Assembly: GCA_949297765.1 (NCBI GenBank)
Contig: CASFTV010000029.1
Span: 1-41,090 of the forward strand
Direction of reading: 5' to 3'
DNA from: an uncultured bacterium
GTDB lineage: Bacteria; Verrucomicrobiota; Lentisphaeria; Victivallales; UBA1829
Length of the DNA stretch: 41,090 nt
In this document: positions 8,567 to 23,010 of the stretch, one piece after another
Numbering within the stretch: the stretch's first letter is position 1
Layout of the letters: each line of letters opens with the position of its first letter
Position numbers and translations under genes: made by a program
Notes under the pieces: model-generated
The model's database searches: none
Told to the model about the DNA's origin: nothing
What the model saw: the letters and a program-made list of their open reading frames with translations, nothing else

Positions 8567-8884
8567 ATGGCTTGGACTCAAACAGAAATTGAAGCGTGTA
8601 TCGGAGCCTGCAAGAAAAAAGCGGCGGTCGATGCGGGATTTCGGAAGAAACTGCTGGCGGATCCGGCGGCAGCGGTGAAAGAGGTTTCCGGCAAGGAGAT
8701 TCCAGCCGGATTCAAGATCAAGATTCTGGAAAACGATCCGGCGTATGATGCAACGTTTGTTCTTCCTCCGCTGGTTTCGGGAAATGTCTCCGACAGCGAG
8801 CTGGACGAAGTCACCGCCGGCATCTGCGGATTGCAGAGCTGCGGAATGAAGGCTTGCGCTGCGGCGGAAAACGGAGCCAAGTAA
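8567..8884 (+). CDS. NHLP-leader RiPP precursor 1 (Cys-pentad core)
   Basis: This 105-residue precursor has a nitrile-hydratase-alpha-like leader (residues 1-85): FRKKLLADPAAAVKEVSGKE, then FKIKILENDPAYDATFVLPP, then SDSELDEVTAG. The C39 peptidase of the NHLM transporter should cut after TAG, leaving the 20-residue core ICGLQSCGMKACAAAENGAK. Core Cys lie at 87, 92 and 97, five apart, and the last residue is Lys. Two further Cys (11 and 15) in the leader are shared with precursors 2 and 3. The ribosome site AAGGAGG sits 8 bases before the ATG and is very strong. I infer that the SPASM radical SAM enzyme downstream modifies the core Cys pattern. Confidence 0.9.
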   Translation: MAWTQTEIEACIGACKKKAAVDAGFRKKLLADPAAAVKEVSGKEIPAGFKIKILENDPAYDATFVLPPLVSGNVSDSELDEVTAGICGLQSCGMKACAAAENGAK

Positions 8885-8902
8885 GTCTCTTCCGGCGGTT
8901 CT

Positions 8903-8922
8903 CCGGAGCGGACCCGCTCCGG
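8903..8922 (+). other. Perfect hairpin between precursors 1 and 2
   Basis: CCGGAGCG (8903-8910) and CGCTCCGG (8915-8922) form an 8-bp stem with loop GACC, 19 bases after the precursor 1 stop. No T run follows, so it is not a classical terminator. It may protect the 3' end of precursor mRNA or weaken read-through. Confidence 0.6.
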
Positions 8923-8970
8923 GACCGTTGGAACAATCAGCGAATAACGTGAAAAAGAAGGAGGTCGAAA

Positions 8971-9288
8971 ATGGCTTGGACTCAAACAGAAATTGAAGCA
9001 TGTATCGGAGCCTGCAAGAAAAAAGCGGCAGTCGATGTGGAATTCCGGAAGAAACTGCTGGCGGATCCGGCGGCAGCGGTGAAAGAGGTCTCCGGCAAGG
9101 AGATTCCAGCCGGATTCAAGATCAAGATTCTGGAAAACGATCCGGCATATGACGCGACATTTGTTCTTCCGCCGCTGATTTCGGGAAATCTCTCCGATCG
9201 CGAGCTCGACGAAGTCGCCGCCGGGATCTGCGGATTGCAGACCTGCGCGATGGATGCCTGCGGCGCTGCCGGAAACGGATCCAAATAA
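8971..9288 (+). CDS. NHLP-leader RiPP precursor 2 (Cys-pentad core)
   Basis: This 105-residue paralogue of precursor 1 has the same leader apart from six substitutions, the same leader Cys (11 and 15), and cleavage expected after AAG (residue 85). The core is ICGLQTCAMDACGAAGNGSK, again with Cys at 87, 92 and 97 and a terminal Lys. Positions that change between cores 1 and 2 lie between the Cys residues or in the tail (S/T, G/A, K/D, A/G, E/G, A/S), while the spacing is fixed. That is the pattern expected if the Cys residues are the modification sites. The ribosome site is identical to that of copy 1. Confidence 0.9.
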   Translation: MAWTQTEIEACIGACKKKAAVDVEFRKKLLADPAAAVKEVSGKEIPAGFKIKILENDPAYDATFVLPPLISGNLSDRELDEVAAGICGLQTCAMDACGAAGNGSK

Positions 9289-9335
9289 GATTCCGGAATC
9301 ATCCTTTGCAACAAAATCAATTCAGGAGAAAAATC

Positions 9336-9647
9336 ATGGCTTGGACACAGCAGGAGATTAATAACTGTATCGCCGCCTGCAAACGGAAAGCCGCCGTCGA
9401 TGCGGCGTTCCGGAAACAGCTTCTGGCGGATCCGGCCACGGCAATACGGGAACTTGCCGGCAAGGAAATCCCGTCGGGATTCCGGATCAAAGTATTGGAA
9501 AACGACCCGGAGTACGATGCGACATTTGTTCTTCCGCCGCCGATTTCGGGTAATCTTTCAGACAAGGAACTTGACGGTGTGACCGGCGGAAGCGTGTTGT
9601 GTCCCGTTGAGGTCTGCGCCGCAAACGTCTGCGGCGCGGATAAGTAA
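9336..9647 (+). CDS. NHLP-leader RiPP precursor 3 (Cys-pentad core, GG site)
   Basis: This 103-residue precursor has a leader alignable to precursors 1 and 2 without gaps (MAWTQQEINNCIAACKRKAA, then LADPATAIRELAGKEIPSGF, then LSDKELDGVTGG). It has a true double-Gly cleavage site at 84-85. The 18-residue core is SVLCPVEVCAANVCGADK, with Cys at 89, 94 and 99: the same five-residue spacing shifted by two, and again a C-terminal Lys. The ATG at 9336 is chosen over one 30 bases upstream because AGGAG (9324-9328) lies 7 bases before it and the protein then matches its paralogues from residue 1. It is the oldest-diverged of the three. Confidence 0.9.
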   Translation: MAWTQQEINNCIAACKRKAAVDAAFRKQLLADPATAIRELAGKEIPSGFRIKVLENDPEYDATFVLPPPISGNLSDKELDGVTGGSVLCPVEVCAANVCGADK

Positions 9648-9676: not shown

Positions 9677-10975
9677 ATGATTTGGTCGAGATACAACCGG
9701 GTGTTCCAGTCGCAGAAACAGGGATGGGTGCTGTACAATGCTCTCTCCAATACGTTTCTTGCGCTTCCGGAACCCTTTGGCAAAACGCTGGAAGCTCTGC
9801 ATGCCGGGGACGAGTTCCGGTGCGATGATCCCGGATTGTCCCTGCAGCTGATCGCCGCCAAAGCCGTGGTCGATCCCGGCGAAGACGACCGCCTGCGCGA
9901 TGTCCTGCGGATGAAACGGCGGATGGCCGATTTCAGCGAACGCATGCTGCTGCTTACCGTGGCGCCGACTCGAAACTGCAACTTCGCGTGTCCTTACTGC
10001 TTTGAAGAAAACCGGGCCGGCATCAACATGAGCCGCGAAACCGAGGACCTCCTGGTCAGGTTCGCCGAACGCTTCCAGCCGGGACAGATGTTCGGCGTAA
10101 CCTGGTTCGGAGGGGAACCTCTGCTGCGGTTCGAACAGATCTGCCGTCTTTCCGACCGCTTCCGGGCTTTGGATTTCCGTCATTACCGCGCCTCGCTGAT
10201 TACCAACGGCTATCTGCTGGACGCGGAAAAGGCGGCGCAGCTTGAGGATCTGGCGATCCGGGAGGTGCAGATCACGCTGGACGGACCCGAAGAGGTGCAC
10301 GACCGGCGGCGGACTCTGGTTTCCGGCGGCCCGACCTTCCGGAAAATCCTCGAAAACATCGACACTCTGTTCGCTTCCGCCTGGACCGGCCATCTGCACC
10401 TGCGGGTCAATGTCGACCGGACCAACGCGGAGGACTACCACCGGATCTACAATTTTCTCTACGCCCGCTATCCTGAAAAGACGGAGCATCTGCACGTCTA
10501 TCCGGGAATCGTCCATGCGATGGGCAAGGAGAATCCGGATACCGCGTGCCTGTTCAATGTTGACGAGGCGGCCGATTTCCAGATCGAACAGTTCCGCCGT
10601 TACGGCGTGCAGAGCCATCCGTTTTATCCCGGACGGAAACTTTTCAACTGCATTGCGGCGCGGCGGAACGGTTATGTGGTCGGTCCCGGAGGAGAACTCT
10701 ACAAATGCTGGAATGATATCGGCATCGCGGAACGGATCGTCGGTCATGTCGATCCGGAAAAACCGTGGAACAATGAACTGCTCGCCGAGTGGCTGGAAGG
10801 ACAGAACGCGCTCAACGATCCGGAGTGCCTTGCCTGCGGCCTGATGCCGGTGTGCGACGGCGGCTGTCCGGCGCTGCGCCGCGAAAAGGCTCCCCACTGC
10901 TCGCGTTACCGGAATCGTCTTCCGGAACTGCTGGAGGCTCATTATGACGCAACCTGCCGGAACAGACACAATTGA
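9677..10975 (+). CDS. Radical SAM/SPASM peptide maturase
   Basis: This 432-residue enzyme starts with a small domain (YNRVFQSQKQGWVLYNALSN) like those at the start of many peptide-modifying SPASM enzymes. The radical SAM cluster motif is C101-x3-C105-x2-C108 (CNFACPYCFE), followed by FGGEPLL at about 160. A SPASM region binds extra Fe-S clusters: C325, C344, C384, C387, C393 and C397 (CLACGLMPVCDGGCP), plus a late Cys in HCSRYR. Relatives form Cys thioether or other crosslinks in RiPPs. It lies 29 bases after precursor 3 and before the GNAT gene, so I infer that it acts on the C-x4-C-x4-C cores, perhaps making a ranthipeptide-like product. Crosslink type and acceptor residues cannot be read from sequence. 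Confidence 0.88.
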   Translation: MIWSRYNRVFQSQKQGWVLYNALSNTFLALPEPFGKTLEALHAGDEFRCDDPGLSLQLIAAKAVVDPGEDDRLRDVLRMKRRMADFSERMLLLTVAPTRNCNFACPYCFEENRAGINMSRETEDLLVRFAERFQPGQMFGVTWFGGEPLLRFEQICRLSDRFRALDFRHYRASLITNGYLLDAEKAAQLEDLAIREVQITLDGPEEVHDRRRTLVSGGPTFRKILENIDTLFASAWTGHLHLRVNVDRTNAEDYHRIYNFLYARYPEKTEHLHVYPGIVHAMGKENPDTACLFNVDEAADFQIEQFRRYGVQSHPFYPGRKLFNCIAARRNGYVVGPGGELYKCWNDIGIAERIVGHVDPEKPWNNELLAEWLEGQNALNDPECLACGLMPVCDGGCPALRREKAPHCSRYRNRLPELLEAHYDATCRNRHN

Positions 10976-11918
10976 AATCGAATCGCTTCATCTTTTCAAT
11001 TTGAAGCATTACCGGTCGTTTTTCACCGTGCGCCAGCAGGCGCTTTTCGGAGATTCTCTTCCGGGCGGGAGGCATCGGCTGTTCGGCGCGCGCTGCGAGG
11101 GAGTCCCCGCGGGAGTGATATGGGCCGGGCCGGACCAGAATCCCGCCGGAGTGTTTCTCTTCCATCTCTATGTTGCGGAGGCGTTCCGGCGGCGCGGCAT
11201 CGGACGCAGACTGCTGGAGACGATCCGTTCCACGGCTGCCGAAGAGGGGTTCCGGGAGGTGTATGTACGCTTCCGTCGGAAAAACCGTGTCGAAAGTGCA
11301 TTGTGGAAGATGCTGGACACTTTTCCGGGACCGTGTGTCCGTCTGGAGACGGCATTCCGTCTGGAGCTGCCCTCCGGAGCAGAACGCGAACTGCGGGTGC
11401 GGACCCGGTCCGACCGGTGGAGCGTGGTCCCTCTGGAGACGGCCGTCGCCGCACTGGGAGAGGAACAGCGCACGGAGATGGCGGAACGGGAACGGCGTTT
11501 CCTGGAAGGACTCGGACGGCTTTCCCTGACGGATCCGGCAGAGTGGAAAAAATTCCTCCGCGAAGGAGTCTTTCTGGCTCCGTTCTGGAGTGATTCCGGA
11601 CTGCCCCGGTTCGGCCGGGCCTGTGTGGAACGTGCCACCGGACGGCTCGCCGGATGGATCGCCGGGGAGTTGACGGAAGGCGAACTGCATGTCCGCCGCG
11701 CGTTTGTGGAGCCGGAATTCCGCGGCGTGGAAGTGATGGCTCTGCTGGCCGAAGAGGCCTACGAATGGATGCATCGGACCGGCGGAGCTCTCCGCTGGGA
11801 GGTCAAATACTGGAACCAGGTGTTTCAGCGGGGATGCCTCCGCTACGCCGGACGCTTGAAAATCAATGAATCCATCGAGGATTGCGTTAAAATAATCCCT
11901 GCAAAATCAGGAGAATGA
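10944..11918 (+). CDS. Tandem GNAT-domain acyltransferase of the RiPP locus
   Basis: This 324-residue protein has two GNAT folds. The first has a clear acyl-CoA loop (VAEAFRRRGIGRRLLETI, about residues 76-93). The second is weaker (FVEPEFRGVEVMALLAEEAY, about 254-273). It overlaps the SPASM gene by 32 bases, which suggests translational coupling. GNAT enzymes next to NHLP precursors in selidamide pathways attach fatty acyl groups to Lys or ornithine side chains. Here precursors 1-3 all end in Lys and precursor 4 has one Lys in its core, so peptide acylation is a reasonable inference. Self-protection by acetylation is the other possibility. The second domain may be catalytically dead and serve in peptide binding. 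Confidence 0.75.
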   Translation: MTQPAGTDTIEIESLHLFNLKHYRSFFTVRQQALFGDSLPGGRHRLFGARCEGVPAGVIWAGPDQNPAGVFLFHLYVAEAFRRRGIGRRLLETIRSTAAEEGFREVYVRFRRKNRVESALWKMLDTFPGPCVRLETAFRLELPSGAERELRVRTRSDRWSVVPLETAVAALGEEQRTEMAERERRFLEGLGRLSLTDPAEWKKFLREGVFLAPFWSDSGLPRFGRACVERATGRLAGWIAGELTEGELHVRRAFVEPEFRGVEVMALLAEEAYEWMHRTGGALRWEVKYWNQVFQRGCLRYAGRLKINESIEDCVKIIPAKSGE

Positions 11919-11920
11919 GA

Positions 11921-12262
11921 ATGAGTAAAATCGAAGAAAATCTGATGAAGTGGAAAGAGGTCGAGGCAAAAGTGATCGCCCGGGCGCTGGCCGACGAGGC
12001 ATTCCGCACCCGTCTCGAACAGGATCCCCGCGAAACGATCGAAACCGAACTGCAGTGCAAAATCAGCGGCGATGTGACGTTCAAGGTCCGCGAGGAGGAA
12101 AACCCCGGCGAAATGACCATCCTGCTTCCGAAACTCCCGAAAAAAGAGGTGGGAGAACAGCTGAGCGACCGCGAAATCGACGATATCGTGGCGGCCGGAA
12201 ACATCGGAATCTCTGTCGGCATCGTGACAACCGACATCGTGCTGGTCAAGGGAATCGTCTGA
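11921..12262 (+). CDS. NHLP-leader RiPP precursor 4 (Cys-free, Val/Ile-rich core)
   Basis: This 113-residue precursor has an NHLP leader (ALADEAFRTRLEQDPRETIE, then GEMTILLPKLPKK, then LSDREIDDIVAAG) but is only distantly related to precursors 1-3. Cleavage after residue 93 would leave NIGISVGIVTTDIVLVKGIV: no Cys, ten Ile/Val, two Thr and one Lys. Such a beta-branched core recalls proteusins that are epimerised and C-methylated. The PoyD-type epimerase gene starts 20 bases downstream and the B12 radical SAM methyltransferase follows. The ATG at 11921 is preferred to that at 11915 because AGGAG (11909-11913) is 7 bases before it, against 1 base. Confidence 0.87.
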   Translation: MSKIEENLMKWKEVEAKVIARALADEAFRTRLEQDPRETIETELQCKISGDVTFKVREEENPGEMTILLPKLPKKEVGEQLSDREIDDIVAAGNIGISVGIVTTDIVLVKGIV

Positions 12263-12270
12263 GTTCAGAT

Positions 12271-12285
12271 GGAGGAGCACCCTTG
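12271..12285 (+). promoter_or_regulatory. Strong ribosome site that fixes a TTG start
   Basis: GGAGGAG (12271-12277) stands 5 bases before TTG (12283-12285). No ATG or GTG in this frame lies close by, and the protein resembles its family from this point. Confidence 0.8.
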
Positions 12286-13626
12286 AACTTCCCCGATTAC
12301 AAACGCTTTCTCGAATCCTACATGGGAGACGATGCCTTCCGGGAACATTTCGACCGCTCTCCCGCCGCCGCGCTGCGGGAAGCCGGTTTGAATCCGGAAT
12401 CAACGCCGGAATTTCTTCTGGCGGTCGGGGAGGGATGCCGCAGCCGCAACTTCCGTCCGGTCGTGGACCGCTTCCCGGATGAGCTGGCGGAACTGCGCCG
12501 GTTCGCCGCTGAACAGGAAAACGGAAATCCGTTCACGGTACGCTGCCGGAACGCCTGTTCCGATAATCCGCGCTTCGAAGCATGGCGGGAACGGCGCCGT
12601 CAGGGGAACCGCGCGGTGCTTCAGCCGATGTATTTCGACCGCGCGTTCAACATCGCTCTTGCCTGTGAACTCGGGGTCGGGTGTTCCGGACAATGCGGAT
12701 TCTGCTGCTTTGATGCGCCGCCTCTCCGGGAAAATTTCTGGTATACGCCGGAAAACCGGACCTTGTGGCGCGATGTGCTGAGGGTGTTTCGCAATCTGCT
12801 CGGCTCCCGGGCGGGGGCGGCGGCCCTCTACTGGGCAACCGATCCTTTCGACAATCCGGATCTGGAAAAATTCTATCAGGATTTTTATGAATGCAACCAT
12901 GTCTGGCCGCCGATCACGACGCGCTGGCCGCTGCGGGATCCCGCCCGGACCCGCCGCTTCGCCGCGGAAGGCCGCAGACACGGACAGCCCTGCTGCCGCT
13001 TTTCCCTGACGGAACGCGGGGAACTGCGCCGGTTTTTCCGGGAATTTTCCGCAGAGGAGACGATGGACTGGAGTCTTGTCCTGAACAATCCGGAGTCGCT
13101 GAACTGCTATTCCATCACCGGCCGGGCGCGGGAACTGCAATCCGGGAATCCTGAAAAGTGTCAGGAGGCGACAACCAGCAGTTGTCTTTCCGGATTTCTG
13201 GTGAATTTGTGCCGCCGGGAGGTCCGGCTGCTCTCTCCCTGCGCGCCGGATGAGGCAAATCCGTATGGATTCCATCTCTGGACGGAGGCAACATTCCGCG
13301 ACGCGGCGGAGCTGGAACAGCTGCTGGGGAAAATTCAGGAACGGTTTTTCCCGGAAGGACCGGAGGCTCTGCCGTTTCTGCGGTTGTCCTCCTGCTGGAC
13401 GCTGTCGGTTTCCGGCGGACATGCGGAATTGGTCTCCCGCTATCTGGTGCGTCGTTTTGATGTGTCGGATCCGGAGGCCGCTCTGCTGGAAAAATTGAAG
13501 ACCGGCATCTCCCGGGAAGAGTTCAACCGGGAGTTCGGCGGAATGCTGGCTCCGTTCGGATGCGTCGGCGGATTGCTTGAAACATTGTGGAAATCCGGCA
13601 TGCTGTCGGAGGAGGAAGACCATTGA
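12283..13626 (+). CDS. PoyD-type radical SAM peptide epimerase
   Basis: This 447-residue protein has the radical SAM motif C134-x3-C138-x2-C141 (CSGQCGFCC). After it come YWATDPFDNPDLEKFYQDF (about residues 185-204) and a TTRW..RDPARTRR segment, features I associate with the RiPP amino-acid epimerase family of PoyD (polytheonamide) and OspD. These enzymes abstract the alpha hydrogen and convert L- to D-residues in a core peptide. The first 40 residues (FLESYMGDDAFREHF, then RSPAAALREAGL) look like the start of an NHLP leader. The start is TTG behind GGAGGAG; its TGA overlaps the next TTG start by four bases. The natural substrate is probably precursor 4, directly upstream; action on the Cys-containing cores cannot be excluded. 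Confidence 0.82.
   Translation: MNFPDYKRFLESYMGDDAFREHFDRSPAAALREAGLNPESTPEFLLAVGEGCRSRNFRPVVDRFPDELAELRRFAAEQENGNPFTVRCRNACSDNPRFEAWRERRRQGNRAVLQPMYFDRAFNIALACELGVGCSGQCGFCCFDAPPLRENFWYTPENRTLWRDVLRVFRNLLGSRAGAAALYWATDPFDNPDLEKFYQDFYECNHVWPPITTRWPLRDPARTRRFAAEGRRHGQPCCRFSLTERGELRRFFREFSAEETMDWSLVLNNPESLNCYSITGRARELQSGNPEKCQEATTSSCLSGFLVNLCRREVRLLSPCAPDEANPYGFHLWTEATFRDAAELEQLLGKIQERFFPEGPEALPFLRLSSCWTLSVSGGHAELVSRYLVRRFDVSDPEAALLEKLKTGISREEFNREFGGMLAPFGCVGGLLETLWKSGMLSEEEDH
13608..13625 (+). promoter_or_regulatory. Strong ribosome site with TTG start overlapping the previous stop
   Basis: GGAGGAGG (13608-13615) lies 7 bases before TTG (13623-13625). The sequence TTGA joins this start to the TGA stop of the epimerase gene (13624-13626), so the two are translationally coupled. 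Confidence 0.8.
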
Positions 13627-15554
13627 ATCCTGTTGATATCACGCTGGTGAATATGCCCTTTGCAATGCCGCTGGTGGCTCCGCTCGGAATCAATGTCCTC
13701 TGCGGCGCCCTGCGCAAAGCCGGATTCCGTGTCCGGTGCAGATTTGCAAATATCGACTTCGCGGAACGGATCCCGGAAGAACTGTACGACTATCCGGCCT
13801 CCAACGGACTGAATGTGGATGTGATGCTGGGAGACTGGCTCTTCTCCGATTCCCTCTTCGGCCCGGATCCGGAACGCGACCGCCGTTTTCTGGAACTCCT
13901 GCGGGAAGAAAATAAACATGAACGGCTGATCTGGAACCGCCGTTATCACTCGCTGGACGATCTTCTGGGCGATCTGCCCCTGCTGAAACGCGAAGCAGTC
14001 CGCTGCGTGGAAAAGACCGCCGCCGCTCTGACGGACGGTTCCACCCGGATCGTCGGCTGCTCCAGCACCTTTTTCCAGCGGCTCGCTTCGCTGGCGCTTC
14101 TGAAACGGGTCCGCGAACGGAATCCCGAAGTGGTGACCTTTCTCGGCGGCGCCGACTGTGAACGGGATGCGGGAATGGAGGCGGCTCTCCGTTTTCCGTT
14201 CGTCGACTATGTTTTCTGCGGCGAAGGCGATTTGACCGTTCCGGAAATGGTCCGCCGGGTGCTGGAAAACAACCGTTCGGCGGAACTGCCGTTCGGCGTG
14301 TTCGACCGGGCAAAGGCGGAACGGGGAGTCCCCGAGGTCGCCTGCGTTCCCGGCGAGGCCATCGCGGAATCCGATCCAACCGATTATTATGAACGGATCT
14401 GCGGAAGCCGTCTGCATCGCGCCTCGGTGAAGAAATATTTTCTGGAAAGTTCGCGCGGCTGCTGGAAAGGAGAGAGACAGCACTGCAGCTTCTGCGGACT
14501 GAACGGAGAACGGATCGCCTATCGGCGCAAAGAACCGGAACGCGTGCTGGCCGAACTGCGCCGCGGATACCGGCAGTTCGGATGCCGGATCTTTCTGACC
14601 TCCGACACCGTGCTGGATTTGAACCGGATGCGCGGGCCGCTGCGCACATTCGGAGAGGAGGCCCCCGATACAGTTATCAGCTACGAGACCGTTTCAACCC
14701 TGACCGAAGAGCAGATCCGCTTTCTCTCCGACTGCGGCGTAATGGTGATCCAGAGCGGAATCGAAACCCTTCATCCGAACCATATCCGTCTTCTGAACAA
14801 GGGCAACGACACGCTGTCGAGCATCGCCCTGCTGAAATTCACGCTGGAAAACCGGATTCAGGTTCTGTGGAACATGCTCAGCGGAATCCCCGGCGATTCG
14901 CCGGAAGAATACCGCTGGGTGATGGAACTGGTCCCGAAAATCATCCATCTTCCGGGTCCGAACTGGGGGGCCATCCGTTTTGACAAGTTCAGTCTGTACT
15001 GGCGGGAACCGGAACGGTTCGGCCTCAAGCTGGAACCGATGAAGGGATACCGCATCCTGATGCCGGAAGAATCGGTCTCGCTGGATCGCTGGGCTCTTTT
15101 CTATGACAACCGCAATCCCGCCGCCTGCACATCTCAGGAAGAGATTGCCGAGGTCCGGAAAACGGTCGATGCGTGGTACCGGGATTCCCATCCGGCAAAG
15201 TATCATCTGGAATTTGCCGCTCCCGGCCTTCTGAGGGATACCCGTCCCTGTGCGGCGGTTGCGGAATACCGGCTTTCGCCCGTCGAACAGGCGGTTCTGC
15301 AGGCGGCGCGTTCTCCTGTCGCCCGGTCCGCCGTGGAGGCCTTGACCAAAAATTCTTCGCGGGCGATTGAAAAAATGAAGGAATACGGATATCTTATTGA
15401 AGTGGAAAACCGGCTGCTGGCTCTGCCGCTGATCCTTGCTTCCGAAGAGCGGATCGCAAAAAGCCGGCTGCGCTACCGCAGCCTGTTCGGAGGGCAGACT
15501 CCGCCCGCCGCCACGGTGAATGAGGAGATTCCTTTTATTGAGATCGGACGTTGA
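13623..15554 (+). CDS. B12-binding radical SAM RiPP C-methyltransferase (PoyB/PoyC-like)
   Basis: This 643-residue protein opens with a cobalamin-binding-like domain (about residues 1-200: ITLVNMPFAMPLVAPLGIN, later VTFLGGADCERDAGMEAAL and VDYVFCGEGD). The radical SAM domain has the unusual cluster motif C280-x7-C288-x2-C291 within SSRGCWKGERQHCSFCGLNG. That motif is the hallmark of the RiPP-maturation radical SAM methyltransferases related to PoyB and PoyC, which methylate unactivated carbons of core residues using methylcobalamin. A C-terminal winged-helix-like region follows (SPVEQAVLQAARS). It is coupled to the epimerase by the TTGA overlap. Likely targets are Val, Ile or Thr side chains in precursor 4. 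The exporter genes begin 12 bases later. Confidence 0.87.
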   Translation: MNPVDITLVNMPFAMPLVAPLGINVLCGALRKAGFRVRCRFANIDFAERIPEELYDYPASNGLNVDVMLGDWLFSDSLFGPDPERDRRFLELLREENKHERLIWNRRYHSLDDLLGDLPLLKREAVRCVEKTAAALTDGSTRIVGCSSTFFQRLASLALLKRVRERNPEVVTFLGGADCERDAGMEAALRFPFVDYVFCGEGDLTVPEMVRRVLENNRSAELPFGVFDRAKAERGVPEVACVPGEAIAESDPTDYYERICGSRLHRASVKKYFLESSRGCWKGERQHCSFCGLNGERIAYRRKEPERVLAELRRGYRQFGCRIFLTSDTVLDLNRMRGPLRTFGEEAPDTVISYETVSTLTEEQIRFLSDCGVMVIQSGIETLHPNHIRLLNKGNDTLSSIALLKFTLENRIQVLWNMLSGIPGDSPEEYRWVMELVPKIIHLPGPNWGAIRFDKFSLYWREPERFGLKLEPMKGYRILMPEESVSLDRWALFYDNRNPAACTSQEEIAEVRKTVDAWYRDSHPAKYHLEFAAPGLLRDTRPCAAVAEYRLSPVEQAVLQAARSPVARSAVEALTKNSSRAIEKMKEYGYLIEVENRLLALPLILASEERIAKSRLRYRSLFGGQTPPAATVNEEIPFIEIGR

Positions 15555-15566
15555 ACTGGGTGAAGA

Positions 15567-16898
15567 ATGAATAGAAATCTGTTCCGTAAAAATGCGATGC
15601 TCAAGGTTGCATCGCCGTTTGAATTGAACCGCCTGCTTTCCATTTTCAATGGACGCGAAGCGCTGGCGCTGCTGGCTCTGGGCGTGACGGTGATCGCCCT
15701 GCTGGCATGGGGCATCTTCGGCGTGATCTATGAACGGGTCAGCGGAAACGGCATAGTCATGCTGCAAAGTCAGTTTGATACCATTCAGGCCCCCGCCGGA
15801 GGAGTTCTGATCTCCTTTGATATCGAAACGGGAGATTTTGTCAAGCGCGGACAGATGGTCGGACGGCTCTTTTCATTTTCCGATCTTGAAAATCTGCGGG
15901 AAAAACATCAGAAGCTGGAAATGCTCCGGGGCAATCTTGCGGAGGTCCGCCGGCATACAGACCGGCTCCAGAAAGGAAATCAGACCCATATCCGGAAAAT
16001 GTCCGGAGTGCTGGATGAAACGATCGCCCATCTCGACAAGGAACTGGCATGGCTCGCGACGTTTGTCGAGAAAGGAGAGGAACTCGCCCGGCGCGGCGCC
16101 ATCTCGCAGAAACAGTGGCATGAGGATCAGGAACGGTATCACACCAAACTCAAAAGTCGGGCCGATTACCGGCTCAAAAAACTGGAGGAGGAAAACTCCT
16201 TCTCCGAAACGGAATTTTCCCTTGCCAAGGAGATCATGTCTGCGGAGGCCGAAGTGAAGTCGGCGCTCTTCGAAGTGGAGCAGCTCCGCAACAAACTGGA
16301 GTACAATACGCGGATCATCAGCGCACATTCCGGAACCGTGACCAGCGTGAATTATACCCCCGGCGCCATCGTCCCCGCGGAAGCAACCCTCGCCAGCCTG
16401 ATCGACCTCGATGACCAGAGCGATGAAACATGGGAGCTGTACGCGTATTTTTCCGTCGCCGACAGCAAGAGGATCCGTCCCGGCATGAGCGCCGTTGTGA
16501 CGCCCTCCTCGGTGAAGGCCGAACGCGACGGCTCCATCCGCGGCACGGTCACCCATGTCGGCACCTACATTCTTCCGGTGGAGTCCATCGACCGCACCTT
16601 CCGCAATGCCGCGTTCGCGCAGTATCTTCTCAAACAGTGTGCGAACATGCCGGTCGAGGTCCGCATCCTGATGTCCCGGGACCGGAACTCTCCAAACGGT
16701 TTCCGATGGACCTCCGGAGCCGGACCGGCAATTGAAATCAGCGCGGGAACTCTCTGCTCGGCAAGCGTTGTCGTGGAAAAGGATCCGCCGCTGGAACTGC
16801 TGTTCTCCGGACTGCGCAAATTCATGTTCGGACGGGGGGTGATGGAGGAGTTCCAGCTGAAAAACGCCCAAACCGGAGCCGGGGAGAACAATCCATGA
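15567..16898 (+). CDS. HlyD-family adaptor of the NHLM peptide export system
   Basis: This 443-residue membrane-fusion protein has a cytoplasmic N-terminus, one transmembrane helix at about 31-53 (ALALLALGVTVIALLAWGIF), and a biotinyl-lipoyl-like half (GGVLISFDIETGDFVKRGQ). A long charged alpha-helical hairpin follows (about 105-245), then the second lipoyl half (RIISAHSGTVTSVNYTPGA) and a beta-barrel region. It matches the secretion protein found with NHLP precursors and bridges the inner-membrane ABC exporter to the periplasm or outer membrane. The stop overlaps the next ATG by four bases. No TolC-like partner is in the window, so one elsewhere would be needed for release outside the cell. 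Confidence 0.88.
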   Translation: MNRNLFRKNAMLKVASPFELNRLLSIFNGREALALLALGVTVIALLAWGIFGVIYERVSGNGIVMLQSQFDTIQAPAGGVLISFDIETGDFVKRGQMVGRLFSFSDLENLREKHQKLEMLRGNLAEVRRHTDRLQKGNQTHIRKMSGVLDETIAHLDKELAWLATFVEKGEELARRGAISQKQWHEDQERYHTKLKSRADYRLKKLEEENSFSETEFSLAKEIMSAEAEVKSALFEVEQLRNKLEYNTRIISAHSGTVTSVNYTPGAIVPAEATLASLIDLDDQSDETWELYAYFSVADSKRIRPGMSAVVTPSSVKAERDGSIRGTVTHVGTYILPVESIDRTFRNAAFAQYLLKQCANMPVEVRILMSRDRNSPNGFRWTSGAGPAIEISAGTLCSASVVVEKDPPLELLFSGLRKFMFGRGVMEEFQLKNAQTGAGENNP

Positions 16899-19057
16899 TT
16901 TTCCGGAAAAAACGGGTCGAATGCCCGATGGTGCTCCAGATGGAGTCCGCGGAATGCGGTGCCGCCGCGCTGGCGATGGTCATGGCGTATCACGGCGTGG
17001 TCGTGCCGCTGGAACGTCTCCGCGATGAGTGCGGCGTGTCCCGGGACGGAAGCAAGGCATCCAGTCTTCTCAAAGTCGCGCGCAGCTACCATTTCCAGGC
17101 CAAGGGGTACCGGGAGGAAGAACTCGAGGCGTTGAACGGTCACGCTCTGCCGCTGATCCTTTTCTGGAATTTCAATCATTTTGTAGTCTATACCGGACGC
17201 CGGGGACGCAAATTCTGCATCAACGATCCCGCTCTCGGACCCCGTCTGGTGGATCCGGCGGAAATGGATGAATCGTTCAGCGGAATCCTGCTGGAGTTCA
17301 CCCCGGGGGAAGGCTTCCGGCGCTTCGGACACGAAAACTCGCTGGCGGGCGCTCTCTGGAAACGCCTGGAAGGATGCCGCGGGACTTTTTTTCTCCTTCT
17401 GCTGACCGGCCTTCTGCTGGTGCCGGGCAATCTGCTGACGCCGAATCTCTCGAAGATTTTCATCGACAACTTCATGATGGATGGCTTTTTCAACTGGGGA
17501 ACGCCGCTCATTACCCTTGCCGCTCTGACTCTGCTGGTTACGCTCTTCCTTACCTGGATTCAGTGCAACGGACTGGTTCGCCTGAATTTGAAGGTGGCTC
17601 TGACGGGATCTGCGATGTTCCTGTTCCGGGTCCTGCATCTTCCGGTGAGTTTCTTCTCCAGCCGTCAGAGCGGCGAACTGGCGACCCGTGTCCAGCTGAA
17701 CGACCGGGTCGCGGCATTCCTTTCCGAACAGCTGGCCGCCAATCTGCTCAGCTTGATTACACTCATTTTTTACGCTTTCCTGATGTTCTGCTACGATGCT
17801 GTCCTCGGGACTCTGGCCGCCGTGATGGGGGCGATGATTCTTCTCCTTCTGCAGCGGAAGCTCAAATCGCGGAAACTGCTCGGTCAGAGCATCCAGCTCG
17901 ATACGGGGATGCTCTACGGAACCACCACCACCGGAGTGATGCTGATCGAGACATTGAAAGCGTCCGGCGGCGAAAACGATTTCTTTTCCGGATGGAGCGG
18001 ATTTCAGGCAAGAAGTCTGCTCGGCCGCCAGAAACTGGAAGCCTCCACGGTTCTGCTCGGAACCTTTCCGAACAGCGTGCAGAAGATCACCGTGGCTCTG
18101 GTCACCGGACTCGGAGCCTTGCGGATCCTGGCCGGAAGCATGACCGGCGGAGCATATCTGGTGTTCCAGCTGATCCTCGGCAACTTTTTCGCTCCGCTCG
18201 AACAGCTGGTGAATATCGGCAATTCCCTGCAGGAGATCGACGCCGGACTGAAACGTCTGGATGACGTGATGACCTGCCGGGAAGATCCCTATTCGCTCGA
18301 GGAGGGCGCCTCCCATGCAGGAGAGCCGAAACCGAAGCTGGAGGGCCGTCTGGAACTTCGCAACGTGACCTTCGGATACAATCCCACCGCGGAACCGATT
18401 CTCCGCAATTTCAGTCTGACCGTGAATCCCGGGGAACGGATCGCCATCGTGGGTCCCTCCGGATCGGGTAAATCCACGGTGGCAAAGCTGATCGCGGGAC
18501 TGTATCCGCCGTGGAGCGGAGAGATCCGGTTCGACGGCAAGACGCGCGAAGCCTATTCCCATACGGAACTCTTCAACTCCTTTGCGATGGTCGATCAGGA
18601 TATTTTTCTGTTCCGCGGCACCATCTGCGACAATCTGACCATGTTTGACCGGTCCGTGCCGATCGTCGATGTGGAACGCGCCGCACGCGATGCGTGCATT
18701 CACGACCAGATCGCGGCGCGCAGCTACGGTTATTTTTCGGCGGTGGGGGAAGGCGGCGGAAACTTCAGCGGAGGTGAACGGCAGCGGCTTGAAATCGCCC
18801 GTGCCCTGGTGTCGAATCCCTCTCTTCTGCTGCTGGACGAGGCCACCAGCGCGCTGGACCCTGAAACGGAACAGCGGATCGACCGCAATCTGCGCCGTCG
18901 CGGATGCAGCTGTGTCATCATCGCGCACCGTCTCAGCACCATCCGGGATGCCGACCGGATCATCGTACTCGAACATGGCGAAATTGTGGAATCCGGAACC
19001 CATGAGGAACTGCTGGCCAGGAACGGTTTTTACGCCCGGCTGCTTGCAAATATTTGA
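16895..19057 (+). CDS. NHLM exporter: C39 peptidase / permease / ATPase
   Basis: This 720-residue protein carries an N-terminal C39 peptidase with catalytic Cys21 (MESAECGAAALAMV), His95 (NFNHFVVYTG) and Asp111 (INDPALGPR). A six-helix ABC permease spans about 165-440, and an ATPase follows with Walker A GPSGSGKST (520-528), signature FSGGERQRLEIARAL and Walker B LLLLDEATSALD. The peptidase should remove NHLP leaders after Gly-Gly, Ala-Gly or Thr-Ala-Gly while the core is exported. All peptidase and ATPase residues are intact. It is the first of two ABC proteins usual for NHLM systems and is translationally coupled to the HlyD gene (ATGA overlap at 16895-16898). Confidence 0.92.
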   Translation: MIFRKKRVECPMVLQMESAECGAAALAMVMAYHGVVVPLERLRDECGVSRDGSKASSLLKVARSYHFQAKGYREEELEALNGHALPLILFWNFNHFVVYTGRRGRKFCINDPALGPRLVDPAEMDESFSGILLEFTPGEGFRRFGHENSLAGALWKRLEGCRGTFFLLLLTGLLLVPGNLLTPNLSKIFIDNFMMDGFFNWGTPLITLAALTLLVTLFLTWIQCNGLVRLNLKVALTGSAMFLFRVLHLPVSFFSSRQSGELATRVQLNDRVAAFLSEQLAANLLSLITLIFYAFLMFCYDAVLGTLAAVMGAMILLLLQRKLKSRKLLGQSIQLDTGMLYGTTTTGVMLIETLKASGGENDFFSGWSGFQARSLLGRQKLEASTVLLGTFPNSVQKITVALVTGLGALRILAGSMTGGAYLVFQLILGNFFAPLEQLVNIGNSLQEIDAGLKRLDDVMTCREDPYSLEEGASHAGEPKPKLEGRLELRNVTFGYNPTAEPILRNFSLTVNPGERIAIVGPSGSGKSTVAKLIAGLYPPWSGEIRFDGKTREAYSHTELFNSFAMVDQDIFLFRGTICDNLTMFDRSVPIVDVERAARDACIHDQIAARSYGYFSAVGEGGGNFSGGERQRLEIARALVSNPSLLLLDEATSALDPETEQRIDRNLRRRGCSCVIIAHRLSTIRDADRIIVLEHGEIVESGTHEELLARNGFYARLLANI

Positions 19058-19063
19058 ACGCGT

Positions 19064-21784
19064 ATGAGAATAGATCGTATTGAACAACTGCTGAACGCCG
19101 TGGCGACCGGAGAAATCTCCTTTTCCGGCCGGTATCTTCCGCTGGATGATCCGGAGATCTGCTGGGTGGTCCTCTCCGGCGCGCTGAATCTTTTTTCGGC
19201 GCATGTGGCGCCGGACGGTTCCTGCGGCGCCAGACTGCCGCTCGGGACCGGGGACTGTCCTCTGCACAGCGTGGTCCCGGGTTCCGCTTCCGCTCCGGAA
19301 GACGACGGCCGTCGGATCCTCCTGGCGATGCCGCTGCCCGGCACACACTGTCTGAAGGTCCCCTGGACGGCTCTGGAGGCGCTCTGCCGCCGGGAACCCG
19401 AACTGGAGGAGTTCCGGCGTGCCGGACTGGAGCTCTGGCTGGAATGTCTCGGAGAATGCGGCAGTGCGGGCGCCTCCGTCATGGACCGGGCGGAGGAGCT
19501 GCGGCGCATCCTCCCGGAACGCTGCATGCAGGAGGCCCGGCAGAGAAACGATGCCGAACGGGAGCGCCTTCAGGCAAAACTCCGCGAAAAAGAGGCAAGT
19601 CTCCGGAACGCCATGAACCGGATCTGCAACGTGCTGCGGCCGACGGAACGCTTCCGTCTTCCTCCGCCGACCGGCGATGCCCTGTTCGATGCCTGCGCCG
19701 CCGCCGGGCACGGAATGGGGTTGACTCTGCGCTGTCCCGGAAAACACTTCTTTGCTTCCGCCGATTCTCCGGAGGACCGGATTCTCCGGATCTGCGACTA
19801 TAATCAGGTCCGCTGCCGGAAAGTGGAGCTGACAGAAGGGTGGGAACAGCAGGATTTTACCGCGTTTGTCACCTTCCGCCGGGAATCGGGCGCGCCGGTT
19901 GCCCTGCTCGGGCGCTGCGGGGACGAGGCCCGGATATTTGATCCGGCGGAAGCGCAGGTCCGTCGTCTTTCCCGGCAGGATGCCGCGGCGCTGTCGAAGG
20001 ACGGCTGGTGTTTCTACACTCCGTTTCCGCCGGGACGGATCACGGGCGGAAAACTGCTGGCTCTGACGTTCCGCGGAGCGCGCGGCGATCTCTCGACTCT
20101 GCTCTGGCTGATGCTGTTCGGCGCGCTGCTGAGCATGGCTGTGCCGATCATCAACGGCGTGATTTTCGGAACGGTGATTCCGACGGCGGACCGGGTGCTG
20201 CTGATGCAGCTCTTCGGAATTTCTCTTCTGTTTGCCCTCACTCAGGGGATTTTTGAATATGTGGAGTCCATTGCGATTCTGCGCATTCATGTCCGGGCGG
20301 AGTATACGCTTCAGGCGGCGGTCTGGGATCGGCTTCTGAATCTGCCGGCCCGTTTTTTCCGGGCGTTCAGCATAGGAGATCTCTCTGTCCGCAGTCTTGG
20401 GATCATGCAGATCGGCGAAATTTTATCGGTATCCACGATCAAGGCGGTGGTGGCGGGGGTGTTCTGTTTCCCGTCCCTGATACTGATGCTCTATTACGAT
20501 CTCCTGCTTGGTGCGATTTCCCTGCTGATTCTGATCGTTGTCCTGGGAATCTTTGCCGTGCTGGCGGTTCTGATGGTGCATCGCCATGTGCGCATTCTCG
20601 CTGCGGAAGGGGAGTTGAATGGAGAGCTGGTTCAGTTTTTCAACGGCATATCCAAAATCCGGACCGCGGGCGCGGAGAATGCCGCATTCGCACACTGGGC
20701 CGAGCGCTTCAGTTCTAAAAAACAGATTTACCGCTCCTTTGCCAACTGCCGCACTTTCGCAACGGTCGTGAACGCGGTGATTCCGGTGCTGACGATCGGA
20801 ACGGTGATTTCCATTGTGACCTGGCAGTATTTTCATGCGGAGAACGGCGAAGAACTCATGAGTTCCGCCGATTTTGTCAGTTTTGTTTCGGCGCTCGGGA
20901 TCGTCAGTGCGGCGGTGGGGCAGATGATCATGTCTCTGATTTCGGCGGTCAGCGCGATTCCGGTCTATCGGCGTCTTCGCCCGATTCTGGAGGCCGAACC
21001 GGAGAATGACATCGCCAAGCCGCCGCCGGGAAAACTCTCCGGAGCAATCGACGTCCGGAATATCTCATTCCGCTATGGACCGGATCAGCCTCTGATTCTT
21101 TCCGGGCTTTCGATGCAGGTCCGGCCGGGAGAATTCGTCGCGGTGGTTGGGGAGTCCGGTTCCGGGAAGTCCACGCTGCTCCGCCTGCTGCTCGGATTCG
21201 AAACGCCTTCCGGGGGAAGCATCACCTATGACGGTCAGGATGTCAGCCATGTGAATCTGCAGGCGCTGCGTTCCCGGATCGGCGTGGTGCTTCAGGACAG
21301 TCGTCTGCTGCCGGATTCCGTGCTGCGCAACATTGTCGGACACTCCGGAAAACTCACTGTCGACGACGCCTGGGAGGCCGCCCGCCTCGCAGGCTGCGAA
21401 CAGGATATCCGTGAAATGCCGATGGGAATGCACACCATGCTCTCGGTCGGCGGCGGTTCCGTTTCCGGCGGCCAGCGCCAGCGCATTCTCATTGCCCGGG
21501 CTCTGGCAAAGAAACCGGCGGTTCTGCTTTTCGACGAAGCAACCAGTGCTCTCGACAATGAAACGCAGGCCGTGGTCAGCGAGGGGATCCGGAAACTGAA
21601 CGTTTCCCGTCTCCTGATCGCCCACCGTCTCAGCACGGTGATGAACGCAGACCGGATCTATGTCCTGCACGAAGGGCGGATGGCCGAATGCGGAACCTAT
21701 CGGCAACTGATGGAACAAAACGGGATTTTTGCGAAGCTCGCCCGGCGGCAGCTCGCGGAAAACGGAGAGGAACCCGAAAAATGA
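19064..21784 (+). CDS. NHLM exporter: second ABC permease/ATPase with degenerate N-terminal domains
   Basis: This 906-residue protein ends in an ABC permease (about 345-640) and ATPase: Walker A GESGSGKST from Gly696, signature VSGGQRQRILIARAL, Walker B VLLFDEATSALD. The first 340 residues hold a nucleotide-sensor-like beta region, a charged helical stretch (about 165-190) and a fold reminiscent of a C39 peptidase (about 205-325). That last part lacks the ECG catalytic motif, so it may bind but not cut leaders. It probably forms a heterodimer with the preceding ABC protein, as in other NHLM systems. The start has no good Shine-Dalgarno sequence and lies 6 bases after the upstream stop, so reinitiation is likely. 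Confidence 0.88.
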   Translation: MRIDRIEQLLNAVATGEISFSGRYLPLDDPEICWVVLSGALNLFSAHVAPDGSCGARLPLGTGDCPLHSVVPGSASAPEDDGRRILLAMPLPGTHCLKVPWTALEALCRREPELEEFRRAGLELWLECLGECGSAGASVMDRAEELRRILPERCMQEARQRNDAERERLQAKLREKEASLRNAMNRICNVLRPTERFRLPPPTGDALFDACAAAGHGMGLTLRCPGKHFFASADSPEDRILRICDYNQVRCRKVELTEGWEQQDFTAFVTFRRESGAPVALLGRCGDEARIFDPAEAQVRRLSRQDAAALSKDGWCFYTPFPPGRITGGKLLALTFRGARGDLSTLLWLMLFGALLSMAVPIINGVIFGTVIPTADRVLLMQLFGISLLFALTQGIFEYVESIAILRIHVRAEYTLQAAVWDRLLNLPARFFRAFSIGDLSVRSLGIMQIGEILSVSTIKAVVAGVFCFPSLILMLYYDLLLGAISLLILIVVLGIFAVLAVLMVHRHVRILAAEGELNGELVQFFNGISKIRTAGAENAAFAHWAERFSSKKQIYRSFANCRTFATVVNAVIPVLTIGTVISIVTWQYFHAENGEELMSSADFVSFVSALGIVSAAVGQMIMSLISAVSAIPVYRRLRPILEAEPENDIAKPPPGKLSGAIDVRNISFRYGPDQPLILSGLSMQVRPGEFVAVVGESGSGKSTLLRLLLGFETPSGGSITYDGQDVSHVNLQALRSRIGVVLQDSRLLPDSVLRNIVGHSGKLTVDDAWEAARLAGCEQDIREMPMGMHTMLSVGGGSVSGGQRQRILIARALAKKPAVLLFDEATSALDNETQAVVSEGIRKLNVSRLLIAHRLSTVMNADRIYVLHEGRMAECGTYRQLMEQNGIFAKLARRQLAENGEEPEK

Positions 21785-23010
21785 AGAAAAAACATGTATG
21801 GCTTTTCCTGCTGCTGGCGCTGATTGGGATGACGCTCGTCTTTCATTCGGAAATCGCCACGCTTCTGCACCGCAATTTCATGGCGACGTTCAGTGAAATT
21901 CTGCCCTCCGATCCGGCAAAACAGCGGATGCGTTATTTGAAAAAACATCCGGGCAGACTGAATATTGCCGTCTTCGGACCATGGAAATATTACGAGCAGA
22001 ATGGATTTGTCCTCGACAAGGCGATCCGTCTGGCGTTCGATGAAGTGAATGCGGCCGGCGGAATTCTCGGACGGCGCCTCAATCCGGTCTGGGTCGACAA
22101 TGAAAATTACAGCACCATCGCTCAGGAGGAGGCGGAGAAACTGGCGGCGGATCCGTCGATTTTTGCGGTGATCGGGCCGATTACCTCCGGGCGGGTGCTC
22201 CAGTTCAACTCCCTGTTCGGCGATGTCGGAATGCTGGAGGTTGCTCCGCTCGCCCAGAGCGCCCGGATCAACCGCGGACAAATCAATTCCCTGCTTTTCA
22301 TGCCGATCGTTTCCGATCTGGATGAAAGCAGAGCTCTGGCCGCGTGGGCGGAAAAGAACAAACGCAACAACTTCCTGATCCTGAACGACGACAGCCGCTT
22401 CCCCATGAGCTACGGAAGTTGTGTGGAACAGTCCTTTTACGACAGTAATCTGCTGGTCTACGGCCGTGTGCTTTTCGATCAGAGCAGCAGCAAAAACTAT
22501 ATCCGCGATCAAGTCCGGCAGTATCTCGACTACTTCCCTGTGCAGAATATCATCTATCTGAGCAAGACCGGAGATGCGTCGGATTATGCCGATCTCGCGG
22601 AGCGGATTTTCGCTCGTCTGCCGGAAGGAACTCTCTGCTTCAACGAATTCGCTCCGCTGGACCGTCTGCTGAACGTGCACCGCAACCGCAGCCGGATTTT
22701 CCTGCCCGCCGCAATCCCGCTGAACGGAAAAAACCGGACGGAACTGCGCAAGTTTTTGAAAATCAAGGGGTATGAACGTGATTTTTTGTCGCTGATTGTC
22801 TATCGCTCTGTACATGTCTTCGCGGATGCAATCCGTCAGACCGGATCGCTTGATCCCGGAAAAATCGCTGAAACCATGCGCACCGGCGTGATGAAGACTC
22901 CTCTGGGCGATTTCCGCTTCTCTTCCAGCGGTTTCGAGGCAAATCCGCCGGTGGAGATCCTTTCTCTGGAGGAACTCGAAAAACGCTGGAAGGCCATCGC
23001 TGCCGAATGA
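21781..23010 (+). CDS. Membrane-anchored Leu/Ile/Val-binding-type solute-binding protein
   Basis: This 409-residue protein has an uncleaved-looking N-terminal helix at about 6-21 (VWLFLLLALIGMTLVF) followed by a type I periplasmic-binding fold of the LivJ/amide-binding class: LNIAVFGPWKYYEQNG, then VLDKAIRLAFDEVNAAGGIL, GRRLNPVWVDNENYS and FAVIGPITSGRVLQF. No LIV permease is nearby. The ATG overlaps the stop of the second ABC gene (ATGA, 21781-21784), so it belongs to the RiPP operon. A role in sensing, capturing or handing over the exported peptide is an inference; this gene is not part of the standard NHLM set as I know it. Confidence 0.82.
   Translation: MKKKHVWLFLLLALIGMTLVFHSEIATLLHRNFMATFSEILPSDPAKQRMRYLKKHPGRLNIAVFGPWKYYEQNGFVLDKAIRLAFDEVNAAGGILGRRLNPVWVDNENYSTIAQEEAEKLAADPSIFAVIGPITSGRVLQFNSLFGDVGMLEVAPLAQSARINRGQINSLLFMPIVSDLDESRALAAWAEKNKRNNFLILNDDSRFPMSYGSCVEQSFYDSNLLVYGRVLFDQSSSKNYIRDQVRQYLDYFPVQNIIYLSKTGDASDYADLAERIFARLPEGTLCFNEFAPLDRLLNVHRNRSRIFLPAAIPLNGKNRTELRKFLKIKGYERDFLSLIVYRSVHVFADAIRQTGSLDPGKIAETMRTGVMKTPLGDFRFSSSGFEANPPVEILSLEELEKRWKAIAAE

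What the first reader, a model, noticed from the sequence alone, without database searches (positions are those of the whole stretch)
11921..15554. Cys-free Val/Ile-rich precursor paired with an epimerase and a B12 radical SAM methyltransferase
The core NIGISVGIVTTDIVLVKGIV lies directly before a PoyD-type epimerase and a PoyB/C-type methyltransferase that are themselves coupled by a TTGA overlap. Beta-branched cores with D-residues and extra C-methyl groups occur in polytheonamides, where alternating chirality gives a channel-forming helix. At 20 residues this core is shorter and may form a small membrane-active peptide.
Basis: partly seen in the sequence, partly recalled or inferred. Interest (0 to 1): 0.78.

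Follow-up and report, generated by a model that had tools for sequence, protein, structure and literature searches.

The report
Short D-amino-acid peptide cluster, gut Victivallales
A gut bacterium related to Victivallis carries a complete, strongly conserved gene set that probably makes and exports a 20-residue peptide with some amino acids flipped to the D form and extra methyl groups added; it works like the polytheonamide enzymes, but its two key enzymes belong to a divergent, unstudied branch.

Summary
The precursor (11921-12262) is a real, selected gene: an NHLP leader, an AAG cleavage site and a 20-residue Cys-free core. Between genera the core keeps NIGI[SA]VG[IV]VTTDIVLVKGI[VA] while silent sites are near saturation. 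The next two genes encode a PoyD-like radical SAM protein and a B12 radical SAM protein of TIGR03975, coupled by TTGA. The first keeps CX3CX2C and the H-donor Cys (C301); its model matches the solved peptide epimerase EpeE best and ends in an RRE. Epimerisation plus C-methylation is the best reading. Corrections: the epimerase falls below the curated PoyD cut-off (305 vs 325 bits; eight others score 463-607), lacks an Arg invariant in 94 homologues and has PITTR for QTTTA; both enzymes sit on very long branches. The whole operon recurs in 5 of 137 Victivallales genomes, including Victivallis vadensis. A channel-forming helix is not supported. Side finding: a relative (G024) appears to read UAG as sense (TAG inside rpoC, carB, pheT; RF1 not found).

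The parts
11921..12262 (+). Hydrophobic NHLP precursor: leader 1-93 ending LSDREIDDIVAAG, core 94-113 NIGISVGIVTTDIVLVKGIV
   Evidence: TIGR03793 52.5 bits; conserved in G024, G126, G134; strong purifying selection
12200..12259 (+). Core peptide, 20 residues, no Cys, 12 of 20 V/I/T, one Asp (12), one Lys (17)
   Evidence: sequence; composition
12283..13626 (+). Divergent PoyD-like radical SAM epimerase: CX3CX2C C134/C138/C141, H-donor C301, C-terminal RRE about 358-447
   Evidence: TIGR04517 305 bits, cut-off 325; conservation; AlphaFold pLDDT 93.3; EpeE Z 10.0, RRE proteins Z 8-9.4
13623..15554 (+). Cobalamin-binding radical SAM C-methyltransferase (TIGR03975), CX7CX2C motif SRGCWKGERQHCSFC
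   Evidence: TIGR03975 629 bits, cut-off 282; PF02310 and PF04055 above cut-off; motif in 56 of 59 homologues
10944..11918 (+). Tandem-GNAT acyltransferase, P-loop (RRRGIG) in the first domain; start overlaps the SPASM gene by 32 bases; target peptide unknown
   Evidence: PF00583 63.8 bits; profile match to tandem GNATs beside other epimerases, prob 95.7%; fold match to the clavulanate tandem GNAT, Z 16.2 over 262 residues
15567..16898 (+). HlyD-type membrane fusion protein of the NHLP exporter
   Evidence: TIGR03794 473 bits, cut-off 156
16895..19057 (+). C39 peptidase/ABC exporter, expected to cleave after AAG
   Evidence: TIGR03796 1011 bits, cut-off 853; PF03412
19064..21784 (+). Second NHLP exporter ABC subunit
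   Evidence: TIGR03797 908 bits, cut-off 709
21781..23010 (+). Periplasmic binding protein, conserved beside the exporter; possible sensor or self-protection
   Evidence: PF13458 74 bits; 81% identical in G056 and 72% in V. vadensis next to ABC2
8567..8884 (+). Cys-core NHLP precursor 1 (second product line)
   Evidence: TIGR03793 50.0 bits, just under cut-off 50.9
8971..9288 (+). Cys-core NHLP precursor 2 (second product line)
   Evidence: TIGR03793 54.7 bits
9336..9647 (+). Cys-core NHLP precursor 3 (second product line)
   Evidence: TIGR03793 56.1 bits
9677..10975 (+). Radical SAM/SPASM maturase, presumably for the Cys cores
   Evidence: SPASM TIGR04085 50.6 bits over cut-off 27; best subfamily models Clo7bot and CefB well below cut-off

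Best explanation
A two-product NHLP (proteusin-type) gene cluster. In the line asked about, the epimerase uses a 5'-deoxyadenosyl radical to abstract an alpha-H from chosen core residues and C301 returns H from the other face, giving D residues; the cobalamin radical SAM enzyme adds methyl groups to unactivated carbons, most likely of Val/Ile side chains; the C39 exporter cuts after Ala-Ala-Gly and secretes a 20-residue Cys-free peptide. The tandem GNAT may add an acyl group to Lys17, or may serve the Cys peptides instead. Shown: genes, conservation, catalytic residues, fold, exporter. Inferred: both reactions on this core, number and place of D residues and methyls, target of the GNAT, and the peptide's role (probably antagonism or signalling between gut bacteria).
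For: Leader and exporter models above cut-off. Synteny and all-or-none co-occurrence: NHLP leaders and the epimerase occur in exactly the same 5 of 137 genomes of the order. Core under purifying selection at near-saturated silent sites. CX3CX2C and C301 kept in all four copies; C301 conserved in 93 of 94 homologues, matching the single strictly conserved Cys372 of PoyD whose mutation stops epimerisation in vivo (PMC8326336). Best structural match is the peptide epimerase EpeE (Z 10.0, rmsd 4.2, 211 residues; five EpeE entries in the top six), tied with BtrN at 9.9, and a C-terminal RRE, as reported for OspD (PMC10858898). Methyltransferase 629 bits in TIGR03975 with B12 domain and CX7CX2C. A characterised pathway, pythonamide, uses the same pair to make D-Val/D-Ala and tert-Leu (PMC9259500).
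Against: Epimerase below the curated cut-off; Arg invariant in 94 of 94 homologues is Ala/Gly, His123 is Asn, and QTTTA is PITTR, so chemistry or site choice may differ. Both enzymes on stems of 2.3-2.9 changes per site. Z 10 at 10% identity is modest. Most other epimerase+methyltransferase loci have cores of 34-65 residues. No product or activity has been measured. The enzymes could in principle act on the Cys peptides.
Confidence: 0.66

Rival explanations
1. The PoyD-like protein is no longer an epimerase: its changed active-site residues let it do another alpha-radical reaction (for example dehydrogenation, backbone cleavage or a non-Cys crosslink) on the same core.
For: Family-invariant Arg108 and the QTTTA motif are replaced in all four copies; TIGR04517 cut-off not reached; BtrN, a radical SAM dehydrogenase, ties with EpeE in the fold comparison.
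Against: The H-donor C301 is kept, which an epimerase needs by current knowledge; EpeE heads the fold list with five entries in the top six; the core has no Cys for a thioether.
Confidence: 0.17
2. The main modification is Lys17 lipidation by the tandem GNAT (selidamide/nostolysamide type); epimerisation and methylation are accessory.
For: Tandem GNAT with one P-loop resembles NpuN, which acylates Lys1 of nostolysamide (PMC13060382); profile match to GNATs encoded beside other epimerases; Lys17 is invariant in the core.
Against: Where this GNAT accompanies epimerases the core starts with Lys (10 of 11 loci); this core starts with Asn. The GNAT gene overlaps the SPASM gene and the Cys cores end in Lys in 11 of 12 copies, so it may serve them.
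Confidence: 0.3
3. The two enzymes modify the Cys-core peptides, and the hydrophobic precursor is an unmodified partner peptide.
For: One operon, shared leader family and exporter.
Against: The precursor lies directly before the two coupled enzymes; Cys cores are Gly/Ala/Cys-rich and have their own SPASM maturase upstream; cores beside other epimerase+methyltransferase pairs are Val/Ala/Thr-rich.
Confidence: 0.08
4. Polytheonamide-like channel: alternating L/D residues fold the core into a beta-helix.
For: Large beta-branched residues alternate with mostly small ones in NIGISVGIV; PoyD makes a 1,3 pattern (PMC8326336).
Against: 20 residues, Asp12 and Lys17 inside, no Asn N-methylation clamp, no PoyE/F/I homologue in the operon.
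Confidence: 0.1

Closest known systems
Pythonamide pathway (EreA/EreD/EreB/EreI/EreM, PMC9259500)
   Same: NHLP precursor, PoyD-type epimerase and B12 radical SAM C-methyltransferase acting on a Val-rich core
   Different: 46-residue core, plus N-methyltransferase and hydroxylase; no GNAT or Cys-core product line described
Polytheonamide pathway (PoyA/D/B/C)
   Same: Enzyme kinds and beta-branched substrate residues
   Different: 18 D residues and many more enzymes on a far longer core; PoyD defines the family that the window enzyme misses by curated score
Cyanobacterial short-core epimerised proteusins (OspA/OspD, landornamide type)
   Same: Short cores, NHLP leader, C39 exporter, epimerase with an embedded RRE
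   Different: Most such loci seen here lack the C-methyltransferase
Rhizobial Nif11 cluster with epimerase, tandem GNAT and TIGR03975 enzyme (Mesorhizobium pMHb, L021, uncharacterised)
   Same: Same three enzyme kinds side by side
   Different: Nif11 leader, 48-residue core beginning with Lys; epimerase and methyltransferase about 30% identical to the window's
Nostolysamide/selidamide GNATs (NpuN, PhaN)
   Same: Tandem GNAT with a P-loop only in the first domain (NpuN)
   Different: Lanthipeptide context and Lys1 or ornithine target; no Lys1 here

Membership tests
NHLP/proteusin RiPP | Nitrile-hydratase-like leader | tested here: met
   TIGR03793 52.5 bits over cut-off 50.9
NHLP/proteusin RiPP | Double-Gly-type cleavage site and C39 NHLM exporter | tested here: met
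   LSDREIDDIVAAG before the core; TIGR03794/03796/03797 all over cut-off. Site is AAG, not GG
PoyD epimerase (TIGR04517) | Curated family score | tested here: not met
   305 bits vs 325; V. vadensis 300; eight other members 463-607
PoyD epimerase (TIGR04517) | Radical SAM CX3CX2C | tested here: met
   C134, C138, C141 invariant
PoyD epimerase (TIGR04517) | H-donor Cys equivalent to PoyD Cys372 | tested here: met
   C301, 4 of 4 and 93 of 94; equivalence inferred because it is the only other near-invariant Cys
PoyD epimerase (TIGR04517) | Other family-invariant residues (Arg108, His123, QTTTA 210-214) | tested here: not met
   Ala/Gly, Asn, PITTR
PoyD epimerase (TIGR04517) | Epimerase activity | not testable with these tools
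   needs D2O labelling
RiPP C-methyltransferase TIGR03975 (PoyB/C type) | Curated family score | tested here: met
   629 bits vs 282
RiPP C-methyltransferase TIGR03975 (PoyB/C type) | B12-binding domain and CX7CX2C | tested here: met
   PF02310 35.5 bits over 32.1; motif
RiPP C-methyltransferase TIGR03975 (PoyB/C type) | Grouping with PoyB/PoyC themselves | not tested
   PoyB/C sequences were not among the fetched loci; stem 2.9 from all 56 others
Polytheonamide-type channel | Long core with Asn N-methylation and alternating D residues | tested here: not met
   20-residue core, one Asn, no N-methyltransferase in the operon; D pattern itself not testable here
Tandem-GNAT RiPP acyltransferase | Two GNAT domains, P-loop in the first | tested here: met
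Tandem-GNAT RiPP acyltransferase | Lys at core position 1 | tested here: not met
   core starts with Asn; only Lys is 17

The most novel reading that the evidence does not exclude
A distinct branch of the peptide epimerases, co-diverged with its own B12 radical SAM methyltransferase and a tandem GNAT, turns one fixed 20-residue core into a secreted, D-residue-bearing, C-methylated and Lys-acylated lipopeptide in gut Victivallales, with a site pattern set by the altered PITTR/Ala108 region.
Probability: 0.15. Interest if true: 0.78.

Novelty: new variant of a known kind. Interest (0 to 1): 0.5.

Why it matters
It ties a cultivable gut species (Victivallis vadensis DSM 14823) to a complete pathway for a short peptide that should carry D residues and extra C-methyl groups. 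Known pathways with both enzymes act on long cores, often from uncultivated organisms, so a fixed 20-mer with two maturases is a small, testable system for how these enzymes choose sites, and the changed family-invariant residues give direct mutational tests. The V. vadensis locus was already listed in 2010 as NHLP precursors plus exporter (PMC2887384), but that paper does not mention radical SAM maturases.

Tried and rejected
phmmer against PDB found no homologue of the epimerase or methyltransferase, nor did a profile of the GNAT. Plasmid collection: nearest epimerases 28-35% identical, nearest methyltransferases about 30%, nearest precursors are other NHLPs. Parent 2016/2018 papers on PoyC/PoyD are not held, so Cys372 is cited from a review. 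PoyD, PoyB, PoyC, EreD and AerD sequences were not obtained, so grouping with them was not tested. Rejected: chance ORF (selection, synteny); decayed epimerase (intact, high-confidence fold); GNAT pseudogene in G024 (its one in-frame TAG fits genome-wide TAG use). No suppressor tRNA for TAG was found in G024; a match of the pattern TTCTAA proved to be tRNA-Arg(TCT) and another set looks like tRNA-Lys(TTT). Residue-level mapping of the changed positions onto the model was not possible because coordinates are not exported. Literature searches for Lentisphaerae with proteusins, or V. vadensis with radical SAM, found nothing relevant.
Full report
What is there. The window (contig 29 of a 4.23 Mb, 98% complete genome of the order Victivallales) holds one operon-like run on the + strand: three Cys-core NHLP precursors (8567-9647), a SPASM radical SAM gene (9677-10975), a tandem GNAT (10944-11918), the hydrophobic precursor (11921-12262), a PoyD-like radical SAM gene (12283-13626), a TIGR03975 methyltransferase (13623-15554), HlyD, a C39-ABC exporter and a second ABC subunit (15567-21784), and a periplasmic binding protein (21781-23010). 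Junctions are tight: SPASM/GNAT overlap by 32 bases, GNAT and precursor are 2 bases apart, precursor and epimerase 20, epimerase/methyltransferase overlap as TTGA.

Among 137 genomes of the order, NHLP leaders occur in exactly the five genomes that hold the epimerase. Copies lie in G126 (L014), G134 = V. vadensis DSM 14823 (L015, overlapping L022), and, up to a contig end inside the methyltransferase, G024 (L016, overlapping L023); G056 (L017) has the part from the end of the epimerase on, because its contig stops there. The core reads NIGI[SA]VG[IV]VTTDIVLVKGI[VA]. Between the window and G024 it has 13 synonymous and 2 amino-acid changes; between V. vadensis and G024 14 and 2 (pS 0.77-0.83, pN 0.046). 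The leader is equally constrained. The epimerase over the same distance is 66% identical. So the precursor is translated and its sequence matters.

The epimerase. It matches TIGR04517 end to end at 305 bits, below the curated 325; V. vadensis gives 300, G396 in the same phylum 547, and seven others 463-607. I aligned it with 94 homologues. C134, C138 and C141 are invariant; C301 is the only other near-invariant Cys (93 of 94) and is taken as PoyD Cys372, described as the single strictly conserved Cys and as needed for epimerisation in vivo (PMC8326336). But Arg108 (94 of 94) is Ala/Gly, His123 is Asn, and QTTTA at 210-214 is PITTR in the Victivallales copies (one has S at 213). The four form one group with full support on a stem of 2.3-2.8 changes per site; the tree is unrooted and the branch long, so whether the group is sister to the sampled family or a fast branch inside it is open. 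The AlphaFold model is confident (pLDDT 93.3). A structural second look gives EpeE, a solved peptide epimerase, at Z 10.0 (rmsd 4.2, 211 residues), tied with BtrN at 9.9, and an RRE in residues 358-447 (LynD, ThcOx, TbiB1, Z 8-9.4). OspD is reported to carry an embedded RRE (PMC10858898). The N-terminal 40 residues weakly resemble NHLP-type leaders in this and other members.

The methyltransferase. TIGR03975 629 bits (cut-off 282), B12-binding and radical SAM domains over cut-off, CX7CX2C shared by 56 of 59 homologues found beside epimerases; again a long stem, 2.9. Only homologues next to epimerases were sampled, so a nearer relative elsewhere is not excluded.

The context of core length. In loci with an epimerase and a TIGR03975 enzyme, 34 cores have a median of 47.5 residues (range 17-65; only three are 25 or shorter); where no such enzyme is seen, 18 cores have a median of 14. 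The window combines the enzyme pair with a short core, which is unusual but not unique (17 residues in a Desulfarculaceae bin, L064; 24 in L044). Precursors were found by a regular expression, so these numbers are a survey, not a census.

The GNAT. It is a tandem GNAT (fold match to 2wpx over 262 residues, Z 16.2, model pLDDT 76.8) and its profile matches the tandem GNATs beside rhizobial and other epimerases (prob 95.7%, E 9.5e-9). NpuN, with the same layout, acylates Lys1 of nostolysamide (PMC13060382). In epimerase loci with this GNAT the core begins with Lys in 10 of 11, against 6 of 31 without (p 5e-5; after collapsing close relatives 7 of 8 against 4 of 25, p 5e-4). The window core breaks that rule, so the GNAT's target is open: Lys17, or the C-terminal Lys of the Cys cores.

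How it most likely works. Transcribed as one unit (inferred); leaders are held by the RRE (inferred from fold); the epimerase sets D residues and the methyltransferase adds methyls on the Val/Ile/Thr-rich core; the C39 exporter cuts after AAG and secretes the peptide. I put 0.66 on epimerisation plus C-methylation of this core. The ecological role is inferred only.

Comparison and novelty. It works like pythonamide and polytheonamide maturation (PMC9259500; PMC9505594). By membership it is an NHLP RiPP with a TIGR03975 enzyme, but the epimerase fails the curated test for the PoyD family, so I call it PoyD-like. V. vadensis was listed in 2010 as having three NHLPs beside the exporter (PMC2887384); the gene numbers there leave four slots for the five genes seen here in between, so one gene, perhaps the hydrophobic precursor, went unannotated (inference).

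Side finding. G024 (L016/L023) has an in-frame TAG in the GNAT, at a position that is Gln in V. vadensis, and two in a Cys precursor. In 1.21 Mb of G024, 68 of 121 long ORFs ending in TAG run on for 60 or more codons, against 58 of 517 ending in TAA or TGA (p 1.6e-24). Read-through ORFs include rpoC (TAG at codon 1012), carB (258, inside the ATP-grasp domain), pheT (365, 509, 733) and an AcrB-type pump (541). RF1 is over cut-off in the other four genomes and not found in G024, which has an RF2-like match; the bin is 78% complete. No CUA tRNA was found among the tRNAs I could read. A 2021 screen states that the then known bacterial changes all concerned UGA (PMC8629427). Contamination or bin error is not excluded, but the RiPP contig itself carries the signal. 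The window's own genome has RF1 and the window's genes read by the standard code.

Noticed in passing
G024 (MAG CO.O43.metabat-bins.8): L023:5322-5324; L152:6580-11028 (-); L144:8109-11411 (-); L141:616-3084 (-); L149:4617-7763 (+): UAG appears to be a sense codon in this relative: in-frame TAG in the GNAT, a Cys precursor, rpoC, carB, pheT and an AcrB pump; 68 of 121 TAG-ended ORFs run on 60+ codons vs 58 of 517 for TAA/TGA; RF1 not found although present in four relatives. Gln is only hinted at (GNAT site); no CUA tRNA found; bin 78% complete.
   Followed up: partly
L021, L039, L047, L060, L065, L066, L086, L087, L091, L095, L096: Tandem GNAT beside PoyD-type epimerases goes with Lys at core position 1 (10 of 11 vs 6 of 31 without), which suggests Lys1 acylation in these uncharacterised clusters.
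   Followed up: partly
window 8567-9647 and L014, L022, L023: Cys-core NHLP precursors have Cys at about every fifth residue (CX4CX4C) and end in Lys in 11 of 12 copies (the twelfth is one cut by TAG in G024); their SPASM enzyme scores against CefB and Clo7bot models but far below cut-off.
   Followed up: no
window 8060-8356: Nif11-domain ORF just upstream (PF07862 25.1 bits, cut-off 23.8) ending AAGAGKEKPVFLFGLP; no match in the held parts of the relatives' loci, so possibly a further precursor of this genome.
   Followed up: partly
L036, L043, L049, L065, L066, L078, L081, L091, L093: Two PoyD-type epimerase genes lie side by side in several loci, some in separate branches of the tree, hinting at division of labour.
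   Followed up: no
epimerase residues 4-38, window 12292-12396: The N-terminus of this and other PoyD-type epimerases weakly matches NHLP-type leader models (TIGR04509 29 bits; NF038399), as if a leader-like helix were built into the enzyme.
   Followed up: no
window 21781-23010: Periplasmic binding protein of the branched-chain amino acid type, conserved next to the exporter in G056 and V. vadensis; candidate sensor or self-protection protein.
   Followed up: partly
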